DNA of 64,000 bases from Pseudarthrobacter sp. W1I19. Its GTDB lineage: Bacteria; Actinomycetota; Actinomycetes; Actinomycetales; Micrococcaceae. The stretch spans positions 930,001 through 994,000 of the forward strand of contig NZ_JAUSZR010000001.1 of assembly GCF_030817835.1 (NCBI RefSeq), given 5' to 3'. A model generated the notes under the pieces. That model searched no databases, was not told the origin of the DNA, and saw only the letters and a program-made list of their open reading frames with translations. Made by a program: the position numbers and the translations under genes. This document shows positions 50,423 to 58,253 of this stretch, one piece after another. Every line of letters begins with the position of its first letter. The first letter of the stretch is position 1.

Positions 50423-51223
50423 ATGAGGATCGCCTCAGGCCAGTTCAGTGCCGGCAAGGTACCCCGGAACAACCTCCAGCAGATCGCCCGGTTGATGGAA
50501 GCTGCCGCCCTTGGCAACGCGGACCTGCTGGTTCTTCCGGAGTCCAGCCTCTACGCCAGCGCCGAACCAGCCACCGTCCTGGCCGTTGTGGCGGAGCCCC
50601 TGGACGGCCCATTTATCAGCGGTATCGCAACGCTCGCCAAGAACCTCAGGCTGCCCGTCGTCGTGGGCACCACCGAGGCCAATCCCGGCGGCCTGCCCTT
50701 CAACACCCTGGTGGCACTCGACGCCGCCGGCGCCATCCAGGGCACGTACCGCAAAGTCCACCTCTACGACGCCTTCGGCTACCGCGAAAGTGACGGCACC
50801 AGCCAGGGCTCCATTGAGGTGCCTTCCCTGCTCTCCTACGGCCAGCTGCGCCTGGGCATGCTCACCTGCTACGACCTGAGGTTTCCGGAAAGCGCCCGCT
50901 ACCTGGTGGACGCCGGAGCCAACGTCCTGCTGTTGCCCGCCATGTGGATCGCCGGGCCGGGCAAAGAAGACCACTTTTACACCCTCCTGCGTGCCCGGGC
51001 CATCGAGAACACCTCGTATGTGGTGGCGGCAAACCAGTGCGGACCGCTGGCCACCGCCTACTCCCTGGTGGTGGATCCTTTCGGGGTGGTGATCGCCAAC
51101 GCCGGTGAGGCGCCAGGCCTGATTTTTGCGGAGCTTGAACCCGAACGGATCGCGGCGGTCCGTACCCGCGTTCCCTCCCTGCGGAACCGCCGTTTCCGGG
51201 TGGTCCCTGCTGAAGAGGAGTGA
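50423..51223 (+). CDS. Carbon-nitrogen hydrolase (nitrilase superfamily)
   Basis: The 266-residue enzyme has the Glu-Lys-Cys triad: LLVLPESSLY (Glu40), GTYRKVHLYDAFG (Lys111) and GMLTCYDLRFPE (Cys149). The KVHLYD and CYDLRFPE blocks place it with omega-amidase/deaminated-glutathione amidase-type amidohydrolases rather than true nitrilases. It cleaves an amide to acid and ammonia in the cytosol. ATG 50423 follows GGAGGACGG. The next gene on the same strand is a gamma-glutamyl hydrolase-type amidotransferase, which suggests linked amide metabolism. Confidence 0.85.
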   Translation: MRIASGQFSAGKVPRNNLQQIARLMEAAALGNADLLVLPESSLYASAEPATVLAVVAEPLDGPFISGIATLAKNLRLPVVVGTTEANPGGLPFNTLVALDAAGAIQGTYRKVHLYDAFGYRESDGTSQGSIEVPSLLSYGQLRLGMLTCYDLRFPESARYLVDAGANVLLLPAMWIAGPGKEDHFYTLLRARAIENTSYVVAANQCGPLATAYSLVVDPFGVVIANAGEAPGLIFAELEPERIAAVRTRVPSLRNRRFRVVPAEEE

Positions 51224-51330
51224 GCCGGAAAGTGTGATCGTCTTGACACTTGGAATTGACACTGGCGAAACATTCCGGGCCTGCATGGGCCATAAAATTG
51301 GAGTCAGTAATTCTTCCTGGAGGGACCTCA

Positions 51331-52152
51331 GTGCACACCACCGACGCCGCGATGAAACCTGTCATCGGACTCACCACCTACCTTGAGCAGGCAGGCACTG
51401 ATGGTTGCGGCACGGTCAGGGCAGCTTTCCTTCCCGAGACGTACCTGAAACCGATCATCGCCGCAGGCGGCATGCCCATCCTTCTGCCGCCGCAGCCTGT
51501 GATGGCAGGCATGGTTGAACTGCTGGTCAGCAGGCTCGACGGCCTGGTGGTACCCGGTGGCTGGGACGTCAACCCGGCCCTCTACGGCCAGGAAGCACAC
51601 CCCGCAACCGATGCGCCCCACCCCGGGCGGGACGCCTGGGAGCAGGCACTCATCCAGGAAGCCATCCGGCAGGACGTTCCGCTGCTGTGCATCTGCCGTG
51701 GTGAGCAGCTGCTGAACGTGACGCTCGGCGGCAGCCTCCACCAGCACCTGCCCGATGTCATCGGCAGCGGCCACTACCAGCCGGGCGGCTATACCTTCAA
51801 CCGCATCCCGGTGGAGATCAAGGCCGGTTCCCGCCTGGAACAGCTGATCGGATCCAACCCCGGGCCTGTGCCGGTCTCGCACCACCAGGCGGTGGACAAA
51901 CTGGGCGAGGGCCTCACCGCCGCCGCCTGGAGCGAGGACCAGGTGGTGGAGGCCATCGAACGCCCTGCGAGCACCTTCGCCATGGGCATCCAGTGGCACC
52001 CGGAGGAGTTGCCGGAGGACTTCGGACTGTTTCGCGGTTTTATCGAAGCAGCCCGCGGGAAGTTCCTGTCCCGGCTGGTCCCGGCCACGCCGCCGCCGTC
52101 GTCCGTCTCCGCCGGGATCAATGCCAGCATGGCCGGGCCCACGCTCGGCTGA
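51331..52152 (+). CDS. Class I glutamine amidotransferase, gamma-glutamyl-GABA hydrolase (PuuD) type
   Basis: The 273-residue single-domain amidotransferase has the nucleophile elbow LLCICRGEQLLNV (Cys122) and GIQWHPEEL supplying the His-Glu pair. PGGWDVNPALYG and VSHHQAVDKLG are typical of PuuD-like hydrolases that cleave gamma-glutamyl amides. It probably hydrolyses a gamma-glutamyl intermediate to glutamate plus amine or acid. GTG 51331 follows GGAGGGA. A strong terminator follows, separating it from the GCS2 ligase operon. Confidence 0.85.
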   Translation: MHTTDAAMKPVIGLTTYLEQAGTDGCGTVRAAFLPETYLKPIIAAGGMPILLPPQPVMAGMVELLVSRLDGLVVPGGWDVNPALYGQEAHPATDAPHPGRDAWEQALIQEAIRQDVPLLCICRGEQLLNVTLGGSLHQHLPDVIGSGHYQPGGYTFNRIPVEIKAGSRLEQLIGSNPGPVPVSHHQAVDKLGEGLTAAAWSEDQVVEAIERPASTFAMGIQWHPEELPEDFGLFRGFIEAARGKFLSRLVPATPPPSSVSAGINASMAGPTLG

Positions 52153-52174
52153 CCCGCAAGCTAACCCTCTAAAA

Positions 52175-52231
52175 GCAAGAAACCGCCCCAAAGCAGCACG
52201 TCAAAGTGCGCCTTTCGGGGCGGTTTCTTGC
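52175..52231. terminator. Strong terminator after the amidotransferase
   Basis: GCAAGAAACCGCCCC and GGGGCGGTTTCTTGC form a perfect 15-bp stem with a partly structured 27-nt loop, ending in TTTCTTGC. It lies 22 bp after the stop codon. Confidence 0.85.
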
Positions 52232-52253
52232 GTTGCAGCTTGCCCGGGATAAA

Positions 52254-52265
52254 TAAGCATGCTTA
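52254..52265. promoter_or_regulatory. TAAGCATGCTTA palindrome in the promoter of the ligase operon
   Basis: The perfect 12-bp palindrome lies 141 bp upstream of the GCS2 gene and is followed by GTATGTTTTAG. A related ATGCTTGCTTAGTGGTTTTTAG occurs around 8319-8340 before the acyltransferase. It may be a common promoter or regulator site; the regulator is unknown. Confidence 0.4.
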
Positions 52266-52405
52266 GTATGTTTTAGACACTGAAGTTAAGCCAAAGCTTC
52301 ATGGGTTTTGATCCAGGAGCGAATGATGGCTGATTTCCTTATCGTTTTTCCTCCTGCCCCCCGACCAGCCCCGCGCAGGGGAGCTGACGGTCCTAAGGGG
52401 CAGCT

Positions 52406-53542
52406 GTGATGCGCCGGGTAGGTGTCGAGGAAGAGTTCCTCATTGTGGACAACGCGGACGGGCATGCTGTGCCCCTCGGCGAACTGCTGGAACGCCTGAG
52501 CGATGACGACGGGCTGAGCAGGGAGATGAAGCAGGAACAGATCGAGACCTGCACGCTGCCGAGGATCAGTCTGGATGAACTGGCCCAGGACATCACGGTG
52601 CGCCGGGTGAGCGCCGATGCGACGGCCCGTGCAATAGGGGCCAGGTCCGTGGCCCTTACCACCTCGCCTCTTCCCGTGCAGTCGACCACCAGCCCCGGCC
52701 TGCGGTACGAGCGGATGATCGAGCGGTTCGGCCTGACGGCGGTGGAGCAGCTGACCTGCGGCTGCCACGTGCATGTGGAGGTTGAGTCGGACGAGGAAGG
52801 CGTGGCCGTCCTGGACCGGATCCGGATCTGGCTGCCGGTGCTGATGGCCATCACCGTGAATTCGCCTTTCTGGAACGGCACGGACTCCGGGTACGCAAGC
52901 TACCGCTCCCAGGCGTGGAACCGGTGGCCCACCGCGGGGCCCTGCGAGATTTTCGGATCAGCCGGGGCCTACCACCGCCAAGTCAACGAGATCCTGGGTT
53001 CCGGGGTCCTGCTGGACAGGGGGCAAATCTACTTTGATGCCCGGCTCAGCCACCGGCATCCCACCGTCGAAGTACGGGTGGGGGATGTGTGCCTTTTTGC
53101 CGACGACGCCGTCCTCCTGGCCGGGCTGGTCCGGGGCCTGGTGGAAACGGCGGCAAAGCAATGGCGCAACGGCGTGCCTCCCGCCCCTGTCTCTGCCACG
53201 CAATTGCGGCTTGCCTCCTGGCAGGCGGGCCGCTTCGGGCTCGACGGCGACTTGCTGGACCCTCTGACCGGCCGGCCCCGGCCGGCCTTCGAGGTGGCCA
53301 TGGCGCTGCTTGACCACGTCCAGGCCGCGCTGAAGAGCCAGGGTGAATTCGACGTTGTGGAGTCCCTGCTGTTCCAGGTGTTGACCAGGGGCACCGGCGC
53401 CGCCCGCCAGCGTGCCGCCTTCGCGGAGGCGGGCAGCCTGTGCGATGTCATCGCCGACGCCGTCCACATCAGCAGCCTGCCGGCCACACCGCTCCAGACA
53501 CTGAGGGGTTTGCCGCTGCTGGCCACCGACCAGAGTTCCTAG
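52406..53542 (+). CDS. GCS2/YbdK-type glutamate-cysteine ligase-like carboxylate-amine ligase
   Basis: The 378-residue protein begins RRVGVEEEFLIVD, the GCS2 family start with metal-binding Glu residues, and continues with EQIETCTLP, GCHVHVEV and ARLSHRHPTVEVRVGDVC. Family members form gamma-glutamyl amide bonds (glutathione step 1 in some bacteria) or other carboxylate-amine bonds; YbdK has weak GCS activity. Actinobacteria lack glutathione but some use other gamma-glutamyl compounds, so the true substrate is open. It is the first gene of a tight four-gene operon with 20-35 bp gaps. Confidence 0.85.
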   Translation: MMRRVGVEEEFLIVDNADGHAVPLGELLERLSDDDGLSREMKQEQIETCTLPRISLDELAQDITVRRVSADATARAIGARSVALTTSPLPVQSTTSPGLRYERMIERFGLTAVEQLTCGCHVHVEVESDEEGVAVLDRIRIWLPVLMAITVNSPFWNGTDSGYASYRSQAWNRWPTAGPCEIFGSAGAYHRQVNEILGSGVLLDRGQIYFDARLSHRHPTVEVRVGDVCLFADDAVLLAGLVRGLVETAAKQWRNGVPPAPVSATQLRLASWQAGRFGLDGDLLDPLTGRPRPAFEVAMALLDHVQAALKSQGEFDVVESLLFQVLTRGTGAARQRAAFAEAGSLCDVIADAVHISSLPATPLQTLRGLPLLATDQSS

Positions 53543-53562
53543 ACAACCATCCGGGAGGACAC

Positions 53563-55041
53563 ATGGACCAGAACGAAACGCCGGTGCTTGACGCACTGGC
53601 CGAACACCAGAAACTGGACAGGTACGGCTTCACACCCCCGGCCCACCGCCAGGGCCGCGGCGTCGATCCCCGCGTGCTGGAGGTGCTGGGCGAACAAAGC
53701 TTCAAGTCCGACGTCGTTGCCTCCTCAGGCCTGGACGACCGGCAGTCCTCCAACGGCTACCTGTCCAAAGCCGAGCAGCTCTTGGCCGAAGCCGTGGGAG
53801 CGGACAAAGCCTTCTTCACCACCTGCGGCAGCTCCCTGTCCATCAAGGCCGCAATCCTGGCGGTCACCCGCGGCGAGGGGGAGCTCCTCATCGGCCGGGA
53901 CGCCCACAAGTCAGTTGTGTCCGGCCTGGTGCTTTCCGGGCTGCAGCCGCGCTGGATCAAGCCGCGGTGGGACAACGAGCTGAAGCTGTCCCATCCGCCG
54001 TCACCCGAGGCTGTGGAGGAGATGTGGCAACGGTACCCGGACGCTTCCGCCGCGCTGATCGTCAGCCCAACACCCTACGGCACGTGCGCGGACCTTGAGG
54101 CAATCGCAGAGATCTGCCACAAGCGGGGCAAGCCGCTGATCGTTGACGAGGCTTGGGGCGCCCAGTTGCCCTTCCACCCGGACACGCCTACCTGGGCCAT
54201 GTCCGCCGGCGCAGATATTTGCGTGGTCAGCGTGCACAAGATGGGACTCGGGTTCGAGCAAGGGTCCATTTTCCACCTGCAGGGCAACCTCGTGGACCCG
54301 GTCCGACTGAACCAGTGCGCCGACGTCCTCTCCACCACCAGCGCCAATACCCTGCTGTACGCAGCAATGGACGGCTGGCGCCGGCAGATGGTGCAGGAGG
54401 GCAAAGCCATGATTGACCAGGCCCTGGAGCTCACCAGGGGACTCCGCCGGGACATTGAGGCGATCCCCGGGCTGCACGTCCTTGAAGAAGAACTCGTCCA
54501 CGCCGAGGCCTCCCACGACCTGGACATCCAGCACATCATGATCGACGTCTCGAACCTTGGCATCAGCGGGTTCCAGGCCACGGACTGGCTGCGAGAGAAC
54601 CGCCGCATTGACATGGGCACAACAGACCACCGCCGGACGGAAGCGGTCATCTCAGTTTCAGATGACCAGGAAACTGCGGACCGGCTTCTGGGCGGGCTCC
54701 GCGCACTCGCTGAAGCGGCCCCGGACCTGCCCCGGCCGCCCGCCGTCGTGATTCCTGACGAGGAGGACCTCTACCTGGAGACGGCGATGCTGCCCCGCGA
54801 CGCGTTCTTCGGGCCGGTGGAAGTCATCCCGTGCGAGGAAGCACCCGGCCGCATCGCCGCCGAAATGGCCACGCCGTACCCGCCTGGCATCCCGCTCCTG
54901 CTGCCCGGCGAGCGGATCAACCAAGCCGCCATCGACTATCTCAGGAGCGGGGTGGAGGCAGGGATGGTCCTCCCTGATCCCGCCGATCCAACGCTCAAGA
55001 CCATCAGGGTGGTCCGCGAGGAACCACACCGATCGCAGTAA
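53563..55041 (+). CDS. PLP enzyme of the Orn/Lys/Arg decarboxylase family
   Basis: The 492-residue fold-type-I enzyme has the PLP lysine in VSVHKMGLGFEQGS (Lys226), Asp195 in LIVDEAWGA and His115 in GRDAHKSVVSG. The opening YGFTPPAHRQGRGVDPRV is the family N-terminal motif. Members decarboxylate ornithine, lysine or arginine, but in biosynthetic operons they can act on other amino acids. The C-terminal part (PGIPLLLPGERI) is also conserved. ATG 53563 follows GGGAGGAC, 20 bp after the GCS2 stop. The product could be an amine that the ligase joins to glutamate. Confidence 0.85.
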   Translation: MDQNETPVLDALAEHQKLDRYGFTPPAHRQGRGVDPRVLEVLGEQSFKSDVVASSGLDDRQSSNGYLSKAEQLLAEAVGADKAFFTTCGSSLSIKAAILAVTRGEGELLIGRDAHKSVVSGLVLSGLQPRWIKPRWDNELKLSHPPSPEAVEEMWQRYPDASAALIVSPTPYGTCADLEAIAEICHKRGKPLIVDEAWGAQLPFHPDTPTWAMSAGADICVVSVHKMGLGFEQGSIFHLQGNLVDPVRLNQCADVLSTTSANTLLYAAMDGWRRQMVQEGKAMIDQALELTRGLRRDIEAIPGLHVLEEELVHAEASHDLDIQHIMIDVSNLGISGFQATDWLRENRRIDMGTTDHRRTEAVISVSDDQETADRLLGGLRALAEAAPDLPRPPAVVIPDEEDLYLETAMLPRDAFFGPVEVIPCEEAPGRIAAEMATPYPPGIPLLLPGERINQAAIDYLRSGVEAGMVLPDPADPTLKTIRVVREEPHRSQ

Positions 55042-55076
55042 ATCGCAAGGAAATCGCAAGGAACGAGGACAGCAGC

Positions 55077-56855
55077 ATGTGCGGTATAGCCGGCGAAATC
55101 GCCTTCAACGGAAGACAGGCCTCCACGGAGGCCGTCCTGGACATCATGGGGGCAATGACGTCGAGGGGACCGGACGGACGGGGAACATGGGAGGCGGGCT
55201 GGGTTGCACTGGGGCATCAGCGGCTCAGCATCATCGACCTCTCCGAGGCAGGTGCCCAGCCAATGGTGGACGACGGCGGCCTGGCCATCACCTTCAACGG
55301 CTGCATCTACAACTACAAGGAGCTGCGCCGCGAACTCGAACCCGAGTTCACCTTCCGGTCCACCAGCGACACCGAGGTGATCCTGAAGGCCTACCGGAAG
55401 TGGGGCGATGACTTTGTCCACCACCTGGTGGGGATGTTCGCAATTGCGCTCTACGACCCGCGGCGGCAGGAAGTCCTGCTGGTCCGGGACCGGCTGGGCA
55501 TCAAGCCGGTGTACGTGTCCCACCTGCACGGCCGGCTGCGCTTCGCGTCCAGCCTGCCTGCGCTGGTGGCCTCCGGCGGGATCGACACCTCCATCGACGA
55601 GGTGGCACTGCACCACTACCTGAGCTGGCACTCGATTGTTCCCGCCCCGCGGACCATCCTTCGGGGCGTGCAGAAACTGCCAGCCGCCACTATCCGGACG
55701 GTCCGCCCGGACGGGACCTGGCGCGACCGCGAGTACTGGAAACCTTCCTACACGCGGAAGGCGGAGCACTCCGGCTGGTCCACCGCGGACTGGCAGGACG
55801 CGGTCCGCGAGTCCCTCAAAACAGCAGTACGACGGCGGATGGTGGCCGACGTGCCGGTGGGCGTCCTGCTCTCCGGGGGACTGGATTCGAGCCTCCTGGT
55901 TGCGCTGCTGGCGGAGGAGGGCCAGCACGGCCTCTCGACGTTCAGCATCGGGTTCGACGGCGCGGGCGGCGATTCCGGGAATGAGTTCGCCTACTCGGAC
56001 CTGGTGGCCCAGGAGTTCGGCACGCGGCATGAGCAACTGCACGTCAGCACCTCCGAGTTCGCGCCCTCCATTGTCGGGGCAGTGGGGGCGATGTCCGAGC
56101 CGATGGCCAGCCACGACGTGACGGCCTTCCACCTGCTGTGCCGGACGGTGACGGAGCACCTGAAGGTGGTGCAGTGCGGCCAGGGCGCCGACGAGGTGTT
56201 CGGCGGGTACGCGTACCACCAGCCCCTCGCTTCCGTGGGCCGTGCCGGGGCTTTATCGGCTTTTTCAGCGAGCTTTGTGGACCACAGCCATGAGGAGCTC
56301 CTGAGCATGGTGGAGCCCGAGTGGTACTGCGGTTCGGATGTAAGCCGCCAGGTACTGGCTGCCAACCTGGCAGCACCCGGAGCGGAGACGGCCCTGGACG
56401 CGGTGCTGCGGCTGGACACCCACCTGCTGATGGTGGACGACCCGGTTAAGCGGCTGGACAACATGAGCATGGCCTGGGGCATCGAAGCCCGGGTCCCGTT
56501 CCTGGACCATGAGCTGGTGGAACTCGCCGCCGCCTGCCCGCCGGAGCTAAAGGCTTCGCAGGGCGGGAAAGGAATCCTGAAGGACCTGGGCCGGCAGCTG
56601 CTCCCGGCGGCGGTGGTGGACCGCCCCAAGGGATACTTCCCCGTTCCCGCCCTCCGGCACCTGGAAGAACCTTTCATCACCCTGGTGCGCGAAGCACTCC
56701 ATGCGCCGGAAGCCAAGCAGCGCGGGCTTTTCCAGCCTGCGTACATCGACGGCCTCCTGGCCAACCCCAACATGCAGCGGACCCCGGTGAACAGCAACGT
56801 GCTCTGGCAGCTGGCGCTGCTGGAAATGTGGCTCCAGCACCACGGGGTGGGCTAA
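55077..56855 (+). CDS. Asparagine-synthase-like glutamine amidotransferase
   Basis: The 592-residue protein has an N-terminal class II amidotransferase domain with Cys2 as nucleophile (MCGIAGEI) and SRGPDGRGTW, then an AMP-forming synthetase domain with the pyrophosphate loop GVLLSGGLDSSLL. Its length and DEVFGGYAY and HHGVG ending resemble AsnB and the amidotransferase of N-acetylglutaminylglutamine-amide synthesis. It would turn a carboxylate into an amide with ammonia from glutamine. No ngg-type partner is nearby; instead it is flanked by a GCS2 ligase, a PLP decarboxylase and an M20 peptidase. Confidence 0.85.
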   Translation: MCGIAGEIAFNGRQASTEAVLDIMGAMTSRGPDGRGTWEAGWVALGHQRLSIIDLSEAGAQPMVDDGGLAITFNGCIYNYKELRRELEPEFTFRSTSDTEVILKAYRKWGDDFVHHLVGMFAIALYDPRRQEVLLVRDRLGIKPVYVSHLHGRLRFASSLPALVASGGIDTSIDEVALHHYLSWHSIVPAPRTILRGVQKLPAATIRTVRPDGTWRDREYWKPSYTRKAEHSGWSTADWQDAVRESLKTAVRRRMVADVPVGVLLSGGLDSSLLVALLAEEGQHGLSTFSIGFDGAGGDSGNEFAYSDLVAQEFGTRHEQLHVSTSEFAPSIVGAVGAMSEPMASHDVTAFHLLCRTVTEHLKVVQCGQGADEVFGGYAYHQPLASVGRAGALSAFSASFVDHSHEELLSMVEPEWYCGSDVSRQVLAANLAAPGAETALDAVLRLDTHLLMVDDPVKRLDNMSMAWGIEARVPFLDHELVELAAACPPELKASQGGKGILKDLGRQLLPAAVVDRPKGYFPVPALRHLEEPFITLVREALHAPEAKQRGLFQPAYIDGLLANPNMQRTPVNSNVLWQLALLEMWLQHHGVG

Positions 56856-56858
56856 GCC

Positions 56859-58253
56859 TTGGCCCGGCATCCTGCCTCCACCTCGCTTTTATCCCCGCTC
56901 CGGAAAGCGGTGCGCGCGGACTTTCCTGCCGCCGTCGGCCACTTGTCTGAGCTGGTGCGGATTCCCGCGATGGCCTGGGACTCCTTCGATCCTGCTGAGC
57001 TGGACAGGGCGGCCCGGCACGTGGCGGGGCTGATGCTCCAAGCCGGGATTGCCGACGTCGACATCCTGCAGGCTCCCCGCCCGGACGGTGCGCGGGGGGC
57101 GCCCGCGGTGGTGGGACGCAGGCCCGCCCGCAACGGCAAGCCGACGCTGCTGCTGTACGCGCACTACGACGTCCAGCCGGCCGGTGACATCTCGCTGTGG
57201 GAGAGCCCGCCGTTTGAGGCCGTGGAGCGGGACGGCCGGCTCTGGGGCAGGGGAGTGGCGGACAACAAGGCGGGCGTGATGCTGCACCTGGCCGCGTTTC
57301 GGAATGCGCTGCAGGTCCTCGGGGAGGACCTTGAGCTCGGCGTGACGGTGTTCATTGACGGCGAGGAGGAAGCCGGTTCGCCGTCGCTTCCCCTGCTGCT
57401 TCAGCAGCACGGCGACCTGCTCCACGCCGACGTGCTGGTGGTGGCCGACTCCGGAAACTGGAAGGTGGGGGTCCCGGCGCTGACCACCAGCCTCCGCGGC
57501 TTGGTCCTGGGCACCATCGAGGTCCGGGTGCTGGACCATGCGCTGCACTCGGGGACGTACGGCGGGCCGCTGCTGGATGCTGTCACCGTGCTGTCCCGGC
57601 TGATTGCCACGCTGCATCACGACGACGGGAGCGTCGCCGTGGAGGGGCTGCTTTCCTCTGACACGCCGGGGCCTTTGCTGTCCGAGGAGGAGTTCCGGGC
57701 GGATTCCGGCGTGCGTCCCGGGGTTCCGCTGGCTGGCTCGGGATCCTTGACGTCGCGGCTGTGGACCAAGCCGGCGCTGGCGGTTATCGGGATGGACGTT
57801 CCTTCCGTGGCCCTGTCCTCGGACACGCTGCAGCCGGTGGCGCGGGCCAAGTTCAGCCTCAGCCTGGCGCCGGAGACTGATACGGCTGCCGCGATGGAGG
57901 CAGTCCGCCGGCATGTGGAGAAGCACACACCGTTTGGTGCGGACGTAACCTTTACGCCCGCCGGCCGGACCGAGGGGTTCGCAGGCGACGCGTCCTCGCC
58001 TGCTGCGACGACCATGCTCGCGGCGATGGAGGAGACCTGGGGAGCGCGCGCGGTCTGCATGGGGGTGGGCGGTTCCATTCCCGCGGTCAACATCCTGACC
58101 AAGCTGTACCCGCGGGCGGAGGTCCTCATCACCGGCGCGGAGGACCCCGATTCCCGGGCGCACGGGGCCAACGAATCGATCCACCTGAGCGATTTCGAAA
58201 ACGCCATCGTCGCCGAGGCCCTGTTGATTGCCCGCCTAAATTCCGCGGACTAA
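56859..58253 (+). CDS. M20 family dipeptidase
   Basis: The 464-residue zinc peptidase has YAHYDVQPAGD with the first metal His and Asp, RGVADNKAGVML, the catalytic DGEEEAGSP and GGSIPAVNIL, with SIHLSDFEN near the end. The lid/dimerisation domain is inserted in the middle. It would cleave dipeptides or gamma-linked conjugates. TTG 56859 starts 3 bp after the amidotransferase stop and has GGGGTGGG upstream, so it belongs to the same transcript. It may recycle or mature the product of the preceding three enzymes. Confidence 0.85.
   Translation: MARHPASTSLLSPLRKAVRADFPAAVGHLSELVRIPAMAWDSFDPAELDRAARHVAGLMLQAGIADVDILQAPRPDGARGAPAVVGRRPARNGKPTLLLYAHYDVQPAGDISLWESPPFEAVERDGRLWGRGVADNKAGVMLHLAAFRNALQVLGEDLELGVTVFIDGEEEAGSPSLPLLLQQHGDLLHADVLVVADSGNWKVGVPALTTSLRGLVLGTIEVRVLDHALHSGTYGGPLLDAVTVLSRLIATLHHDDGSVAVEGLLSSDTPGPLLSEEEFRADSGVRPGVPLAGSGSLTSRLWTKPALAVIGMDVPSVALSSDTLQPVARAKFSLSLAPETDTAAAMEAVRRHVEKHTPFGADVTFTPAGRTEGFAGDASSPAATTMLAAMEETWGARAVCMGVGGSIPAVNILTKLYPRAEVLITGAEDPDSRAHGANESIHLSDFENAIVAEALLIARLNSAD

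What the first reader, a model, noticed from the sequence alone, without database searches (positions are those of the whole stretch)
50423..58253. Candidate undescribed gamma-glutamyl/amide pathway: six consecutive enzymes
Nitrilase-family amidase, PuuD-like gamma-glutamyl hydrolase, GCS2 ligase, Orn/Lys/Arg-decarboxylase-type PLP enzyme, AsnB-like amidotransferase and M20 peptidase follow each other on one strand; the last four have 3-35 bp gaps. Each step acts on amide or peptide bonds: decarboxylation could make an amine, the ligase could join it to glutamate, AsnB could amidate, and the hydrolases could recycle. No known pathway (glutathione, NAGGN, polyamine, ergothioneine) uses exactly this set.
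Basis: partly seen in the sequence, partly recalled or inferred. Interest (0 to 1): 0.78.

Follow-up and report, generated by a model that had tools for sequence, protein, structure and literature searches.

The report
NAGGN-like amide operon, different ligase
A soil bacterium carries the amide-forming enzyme of a known bacterial salt-protectant pathway, but beside it sits a different peptide-joining enzyme than the usual one, an arrangement found in many actinobacteria that probably makes a related small peptide amide not yet identified.

Summary
The six genes are real. The 'AsnB-like' enzyme is AsnO, the amidotransferase of the osmoprotectant NAGGN (TIGR03104, 869 bits, cut-off 570). Its usual partner, the ligase Ngg, is missing from this genome (best 29.8 bits, cut-off 569) and over cut-off in 0 of 295 family genomes. 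A GCS2-type carboxylate-amine ligase sits there instead. This recurs in the class: of 81 AsnO places in 80 sampled genomes, 42 adjoin Ngg, 31 adjoin GCS2, none was seen with both, 1 has neither, 7 are undetermined. Ngg-linked AsnOs form one side of a tree branch (99/96). Best reading: GCS2 makes a (probably gamma-glutamyl) peptide that AsnO amidates, a NAGGN-like branch with unknown product. PuuD is co-inherited in the genus (3 of 3 genomes with AsnO, 0 of 10 without). Decarboxylase and M20 peptidase are accessory and often broken or missing; the nitrilase's membership is doubtful. Six targeted full-text searches listed no paper on GCS2-AsnO; two key papers were not held. Product and role are inference.

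The parts
50423..51223 (+). Nitrilase-superfamily amidase; membership doubtful
   Evidence: PF00795 143 bits; nearest NCBIfam de_GSH_amidase 261 bits, under its cut-off 355. For membership: beside asnO also in P. siccitolerans L079 and, with puuD and in opposite orientation, in A. rhizosphaerae L080. Against: not found beside asnO in L028, L029, L058, L060, L159, L160; 64% relative about 197 kb from asnO in G006 and 61% relative in G007, which has no AsnO.
51331..52152 (+). PuuD-like class I glutamine amidotransferase (Peptidase C26), predicted gamma-glutamyl amide hydrolase
   Evidence: PF07722 213 bits; PDB kin include PuuD 6vtv, E 1e-25. Of 13 same-genus genomes in the relatives draw, present (E<=1e-60) in the 3 with AsnO and not in the 10 without.
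52176..52230 (.). Terminator-like hairpin between puuD and gcs2
   Evidence: -36.8 kcal/mol, z -7.2, 0 of 200 shuffles as low. The pattern scan also marks it on both strands, but its total of 7 sites is not clearly above shuffles (mean 4.6, sd 2.1).
52409..53542 (+). GCS2 (YbdK-type) carboxylate-amine ligase, predicted to make the peptide substrate in place of Ngg
   Evidence: PF04107 187 bits; TIGR02050 280.7 bits, cut-off 176.4; not EgtA (31.4 bits, cut-off 370.8).
53563..55041 (+). Short Orn/Lys/Arg-decarboxylase-type PLP enzyme, accessory
   Evidence: PF01276 168.5 bits, PF03711 52.6 bits; SVHKM aligned to arginine decarboxylase 6q6i. Found in 6 of 8 family genomes with this AsnO type versus 14 of 287 others, one of the 6 (G280) in two frame pieces; deleted internally in G009, a remnant beside asnO in G287, not found in G284.
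55077..56855 (+). AsnO: N-acetylglutaminylglutamine-amidotransferase family (trio_amidotrans), GCS2-linked type
   Evidence: TIGR03104 869 bits, cut-off 570.1; on the other side of the branch from Ngg-linked AsnOs.
56859..58253 (+). M20 dipeptidase-like metallopeptidase, accessory, where other AsnO loci have M42 or S9 peptidases
   Evidence: NF005914 533.9 bits, cut-off 300; PF01546. In several frame pieces in G287, two in G133, not found in the G284 stretch.

Best explanation
The locus is an AsnO system in which a GCS2-type carboxylate-amine ligase takes the place of Ngg. GCS2 uses ATP to join (by family chemistry) the gamma-carboxylate of glutamate to the amino group of a second molecule, most simply glutamine. 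AsnO then transfers ammonia from glutamine onto the free C-terminal carboxylate, giving a charge-balanced peptide amide such as gamma-glutamyl-glutaminamide, probably a compatible solute like NAGGN. PuuD, and M20 where intact, break it down again; the decarboxylase is an optional side step. Shown: AsnO identity, absence of a recognisable Ngg, GCS2 linkage, no case seen with both ligases beside AsnO, separate placing of AsnO on the tree. Inferred: that GCS2 feeds AsnO, the gamma-glutamyl bond, the product, and the osmotic role.
For: AsnO over cut-off; no Ngg over cut-off in the genome or in any of 295 family genomes, of which 18 have AsnO. Named loci: of 80, 39 have GCS2 within 6 kb of asnO, 30 have Ngg, 0 both, 11 neither. 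Class sample of 81 places: 42 Ngg, 31 GCS2, 0 seen with both, 1 neither, 7 undetermined. Orientation of the pair varies: upstream fused to a CP-ATP-grasp, upstream alone, convergent, divergent, downstream. Ngg-linked AsnOs, with S. meliloti and Azospirillum, are one side of a branch (SH-aLRT 94; 99/96). Column 568 is L/I in 34 of 34 Ngg-linked AsnOs and 0 of 75 others; column 573 is Gly in 34 of 34 and 6 of 75. The commonest residue is the same in both types at all 32 active-site-region columns checked. Annotated example: Streptomyces fungicidicus glutamate--cysteine ligase / AsnO / alpha-beta hydrolase against S. meliloti AsnO / Ngg.
Against: No biochemistry. AsnO-linked GCS2s are not one clade apart from unlinked ones. 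G009 keeps AsnO but has no GCS2 beside it; family AsnOs L161-L164, L166, L167, L171 and L174-L177 have no ligase hit in the fetched stretch; 11 of 80 named loci have neither ligase; Streptomyces sp. NBC_01276 has AsnO plus S9 peptidase without GCS2 in the stretch shown. GCS2 is common (1-5 copies per genome). The named set is the 80 best matches to the query, many from a few genera, not a random draw. The GCS2 list was complete for only 29 of the 42 Ngg places. The root of the AsnO tree is unresolved, so 'one side of a branch' is not shown to be a clade.
Confidence: 0.55

Rival explanations
1. One reading: the decarboxylase makes an amine (e.g. cadaverine, agmatine), GCS2 joins it to the gamma-carboxylate of glutamate, AsnO amidates the remaining alpha-carboxylate, and PuuD and M20 recycle it.
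For: okrdc co-occurs with this AsnO type in the family (6 of 8 versus 14 of 287, Fisher p 1e-6); okrdc and gcs2 lie in one stretch without asnO in G048 and G295; PuuD, of a gamma-glutamyl-amine hydrolase type, is co-inherited.
Against: okrdc internally deleted in G009, a remnant beside asnO in G287 (full-length copy elsewhere), not found in G284, all with AsnO in one open frame; only 2 of 80 named AsnO loci carry it; Fisher counts ignore shared ancestry.
Confidence: 0.2
2. The cluster takes part in making ordinary NAGGN: AsnO amidates N-acetyl-Gln-Gln supplied by an unrecognised ligase elsewhere.
For: Active-site-region columns, Gln369 among them, are the same as in Ngg-linked enzymes; the public annotation calls such proteins N-acetylglutaminylglutamine amidotransferase.
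Against: No Ngg over cut-off; AsnO on the other side of the branch from Ngg-linked ones; different residues at 568 and 573.
Confidence: 0.12
3. No pathway: unrelated nitrogen-metabolism genes that happen to lie together.
For: okrdc, gcs2 or m20 missing or broken in relatives; nitrilase only loosely linked.
Against: GCS2 next to AsnO recurs in many actinobacterial families in changing orientation.
Confidence: 0.07

Closest known systems
NAGGN pathway (asnO-ngg-M42; Sinorhizobium meliloti, Pseudomonas aeruginosa PA3459-PA3461)
   Same: Same amidotransferase family (TIGR03104) with the same residues in the active-site region; a peptidase in the operon.
   Different: No Ngg (acetyltransferase plus ATP-grasp); a GCS2 ligase in its place; M20 instead of M42; AsnO on the other side of the tree branch and different at columns 568 and 573.
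Actinobacterial GCS2-(CP-ATP-grasp)-AsnO-S9 loci (Streptomyces, Frankia, Actinoplanes, Pseudonocardia, Micromonospora), described from loci fetched here
   Same: AsnO beside a GCS2 ligase and, often, a peptidase; no Ngg beside it.
   Different: The window locus has a stand-alone GCS2, a decarboxylase, M20 instead of S9, and PuuD nearby.
YbdK/EgtA/GshA gamma-glutamyl ligases (GCS2)
   Same: Family; ATP-dependent gamma-glutamyl amide formation expected.
   Different: Far below the EgtA and cyanobacterial GshA cut-offs; real substrate unknown.
Puu gamma-glutamyl-putrescine pathway
   Same: PuuD-like hydrolase in the neighbourhood.
   Different: PuuD equivalog cut-off not reached (103.6 versus 266 bits); the ligase beside it is GCS2-type, whereas PuuA is glutamine-synthetase-like (recalled). 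A PuuA gene was not searched for.

Membership tests
NAGGN biosynthesis system | AsnO amidotransferase (TIGR03104) | tested here: met
   869 bits, cut-off 570.1
NAGGN biosynthesis system | Ngg acetyltransferase/ATP-grasp ligase (TIGR03103) | tested here: not met
   Best own-genome match 29.8 bits, cut-off 569; 0 of 295 family genomes over cut-off
NAGGN biosynthesis system | M42-family peptidase in the operon | tested here: not met
   The peptidase gene is M20 (PF01546). Weak criterion: my M42 probe found none in 19 of 30 Ngg loci either
NAGGN biosynthesis system | AsnO groups with Ngg-linked AsnOs and has L/I568 and G573 | tested here: not met
   window has R568 and S573
NAGGN biosynthesis system | Makes NAGGN, induced by salt | not testable with these tools
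   Needs metabolite analysis
GCS2 / YbdK carboxylate-amine ligase | GCS2 domain over curated cut-off | tested here: met
   PF04107 187 bits (cut-off 21); TIGR02050 280.7 (cut-off 176.4)
Ergothioneine ligase EgtA | TIGR03444 over cut-off | tested here: not met
   31.4 bits, cut-off 370.8
Puu pathway PuuD | NF008471 equivalog cut-off | tested here: not met
   103.6 bits, cut-off 266; the Peptidase_C26 domain itself is met
Orn/Lys/Arg decarboxylase | OKR_DC_1 domain and PLP lysine | tested here: met
   PF01276 168.5 bits; HKM motif aligned to arginine decarboxylase 6q6i
Orn/Lys/Arg decarboxylase | A defined substrate (lysine, arginine or ornithine) | tested here: inconclusive
   Every NCBIfam model it hit is far under its cut-off

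The most novel reading that the evidence does not exclude
Actinomycetota hold a second, widespread class of AsnO-made peptide-amide osmolytes built on a gamma-glutamyl bond (for example gamma-glutamyl-glutaminamide), in which GCS2, alone or fused to a circularly permuted ATP-grasp, replaces Ngg, so that many AsnO genes now named as NAGGN enzymes in these organisms make a different, undescribed family of solutes.
Probability: 0.33. Interest if true: 0.75.

Novelty: new variant of a known kind. Interest (0 to 1): 0.55.

Why it matters
If right, a common annotation (N-acetylglutaminylglutamine amidotransferase) names the wrong product in a large share of actinobacteria, and an unknown compatible solute or peptide amide is waiting in easily grown soil strains. 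The apparent swap of Ngg for GCS2 and the AsnO marker columns make this directly testable with one knockout and one mass spectrum. It also gives GCS2/YbdK ligases, whose natural role is mostly unknown (recalled), a concrete partner.

Tried and rejected
Six-gene single operon: unlikely; hairpin between puuD and gcs2, nitrilase only loosely linked. The nitrilase is not ruled out: it stands with puuD beside asnO in A. rhizosphaerae. Generic asparagine synthetase: rejected by TIGR03104 (869 bits, against 420.7 for asn_synth_AEB). EgtA/ergothioneine: rejected. Glutathione: not pursued beyond the model scores. A search for AsnO residues that separate the two types at strict frequency thresholds gave none; columns 568 and 573 separate them when residue classes are allowed. 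The GCS2 tree gives no single AsnO-linked GCS2 clade. Decarboxylase as pathway core: judged unlikely, since it is broken or missing beside asnO in G009, G284 and G287 and has no other cluster gene nearby in most of the loci of the 20 of 295 family genomes that have it. Structure prediction was not run: by its description the tool returns no coordinates, so it could not place columns 568/573. Literature: ten searches; the six aimed at a GCS2-AsnO pairing listed no paper. Papers in the other listings were not read except PMC8070244, PMC5563000, PMC8146288, PMC4064022 and PMC3836493, seen as passages only. Two papers recalled as most relevant, Sagot et al. 2010 (PNAS) and Iyer et al. 2009 (amidoligases, Mol Biosyst), are not held and may already mention part of this.
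Full report
OBSERVATION. The last four are spaced by 20, 35 and 3 bp. A strong hairpin at 52176-52230 separates puuD from gcs2, so the core transcription unit is probably gcs2-okrdc-asnO-m20, with puuD just upstream. Transcription itself was not tested.

WHAT THE AsnB-LIKE GENE IS. It scores 869 bits against TIGR03104, the N-acetylglutaminylglutamine amidotransferase AsnO (cut-off 570). In NAGGN synthesis Ngg acetylates glutamine and joins it to a second glutamine, and AsnO then amidates the product (passages of PMC8070244, and PMC5563000). The window genome is held as one contig of 4.81 Mb, rated 100% complete; its best match to Ngg (TIGR03103) is 29.8 bits against a cut-off of 569. In the family, 18 of 295 drawn genomes have AsnO at E<=1e-150 and 0 of 295 have Ngg over cut-off; the 22 genomes with weaker hits match mainly the second half of the model.

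WHO REPLACES NGG. I fetched the 80 best AsnO loci from named genomes (ranked by likeness to the query, so not random) and mapped neighbours within 6 kb with single-sequence probes. 30 have Ngg, 39 have GCS2, 0 have both, 11 have neither (Fisher p 4e-13, ignoring ancestry). In 19 of the 39 GCS2 loci a circularly permuted ATP-grasp accompanies GCS2, in one ORF with it in the three examples scanned. Peptidase hits follow the split: 11 of 30 Ngg loci have M42 and none S9; 24 of 39 GCS2 loci have S9, and one (P. siccitolerans) M20. For a less biased sample I took AsnO genomes found in an even draw of the class (106 of 394) and searched 80 of the 104 outside the window's family for Ngg and GCS2 (output list cut). 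Of 81 AsnO places, 42 adjoin Ngg, 31 adjoin GCS2, 0 were seen with both, 1 has neither, 7 are undetermined; for 29 of the 42 Ngg places the GCS2 list was complete. Orientation of the pair varies (fused upstream, alone upstream, convergent, divergent, downstream), which speaks against mere inherited synteny.

AsnO ITSELF. Trees of 87 AsnOs plus 2 outgroup rows, of 109 rows, 108 different, and a thinned bootstrap tree of 46 put Ngg-linked AsnOs on one side of one branch (SH-aLRT 93; 94; bootstrap/SH-aLRT 99/96). The root is not resolved. The Ngg side holds Sinorhizobium meliloti and Azospirillum. Micromonospora has both Ngg-linked and GCS2-linked AsnOs, in different parts of the tree, so the partner follows AsnO type rather than genus. 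At all 32 active-site-region columns checked, among them Gln369, the commonest residue is the same in both types. Column 568 is Leu/Ile in 34 of 34 Ngg-linked and 0 of 75 other AsnOs; column 573 is Gly in 34 of 34 and 6 of 75. The chemistry looks unchanged while part of the acceptor may differ; whether 568/573 touch the acceptor was not shown.

THE WINDOW'S VERSION. gcs2-okrdc-asnO-m20 is also present in P. siccitolerans (L079), G006 (L028), G298 (L058) and, with m20 in two frame pieces, G133 of another genus (L060). Others have less: G009 has no gcs2 beside asnO and an okrdc lacking the stretch with the PLP lysine; G287 has an okrdc remnant and m20 in several pieces there, with a full-length okrdc on another contig; G284 has puuD-gcs2-asnO only. 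AsnO is in one open frame in each of these. G280 (GCS2 identical to that of Arthrobacter cheniae L151) has gcs2-asnO alone. Genus g27 has asnO-gcs2 pairs (4 loci); the 8 AsnO loci of genus g12 examined have no adjacent ligase hit. In the family draw AsnO of at least 65% identity co-occurs with GCS2 (7 of 8 versus 6 of 287) and okrdc (6 of 8 versus 14 of 287, one of the 6 in two frame pieces) (ancestry not corrected). Among 13 same-genus genomes PuuD occurs in the 3 with AsnO and in none of the 10 without. The nitrilase has a 64% relative in G006, about 197 kb from asnO, and a 61% relative in G007, which has no AsnO; on the other side, it stands beside asnO with puuD in A. rhizosphaerae.

MECHANISM. 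GCS2 ligases act on the gamma-carboxylate of glutamate (family knowledge, recalled). With glutamine as acceptor the product would be gamma-Glu-Gln, net charge -1; amidation by AsnO would make it net zero, as acetylation plus amidation does for NAGGN. PuuD-type hydrolases cut gamma-glutamyl amides (recalled), matching a gamma-glutamyl bond. M42, S9 and M20 peptidases may fill one recycling role. All of this paragraph is inference.

LITERATURE. A Frankia study reports an asnO-ngg cluster whose putative Ngg has under 15% identity to known Ngg and is separated from asnO by a dipeptidase gene (passage, PMC5563000); the 3 Frankia and 1 Pseudofrankia loci fetched here carry GCS2 with a CP-ATP-grasp upstream of asnO and no Ngg hit, so that assignment deserves a second look (I did not examine their strains). 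Micromonospora provocatoris makes NAGGN and has genes called asnO and ngg (passages, PMC8146288). P. siccitolerans is desiccation-tolerant; its reported xeroprotectant mix is trehalose, glucose and glutamine (passages), which neither supports nor excludes an amide.

VERDICT. A real, patchily inherited variant of the NAGGN type of pathway with GCS2 in place of Ngg; product unknown. New variant of a known kind.

Noticed in passing
L161 9435-10244 (-), L163 9594-10340 (-), L165 10665-11405 (+), L062 10272-11012 (+) and 14853-15623 (+): GAF-ANTAR (RNA antiterminator type) genes stand near asnO, okrdc or gcs2 in genus g37; domains confirmed for L163, L165 and the two L062 genes, L161 by resemblance only. 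They may regulate the scattered version of the system.
   Followed up: partly
L032 5705-8453 (window genome C1 about 787,700-790,450): A second GCS2 (54% to the window's) directly follows a distant M20-like gene (28%) in the same genome, with no AsnO in the fetched stretch.
   Followed up: no
L064 6002-10251: G295 has m20, gcs2 (opposite strand) and okrdc together but no asnO in the stretch, suggesting these three can work without AsnO.
   Followed up: no
L029 7216-12669: Reduced copy in G009: no gcs2, and an okrdc with an in-gene deletion that takes the PLP-lysine stretch, while puuD, asnO and m20 are kept.
   Followed up: partly
L137 11857-13260, L140 11804-13204, L144 11857-13254: Modestobacter and Klenkia AsnO loci have S9 plus a CP-ATP-grasp-type hit downstream but no GCS2 hit: a possible third ligase arrangement.
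   Followed up: no
L118 13118-14578: Streptomyces roseus has an okrdc homologue (57%) 3.3 kb downstream of asnO, the only one among the 80 named loci outside Micrococcaceae.
   Followed up: no
L058/L059 (G298), L060/L061 (G133), L065/L076 (G202): Three family genomes carry two copies of the short OKR-type decarboxylase; most copies in the family have no other cluster gene nearby.
   Followed up: no
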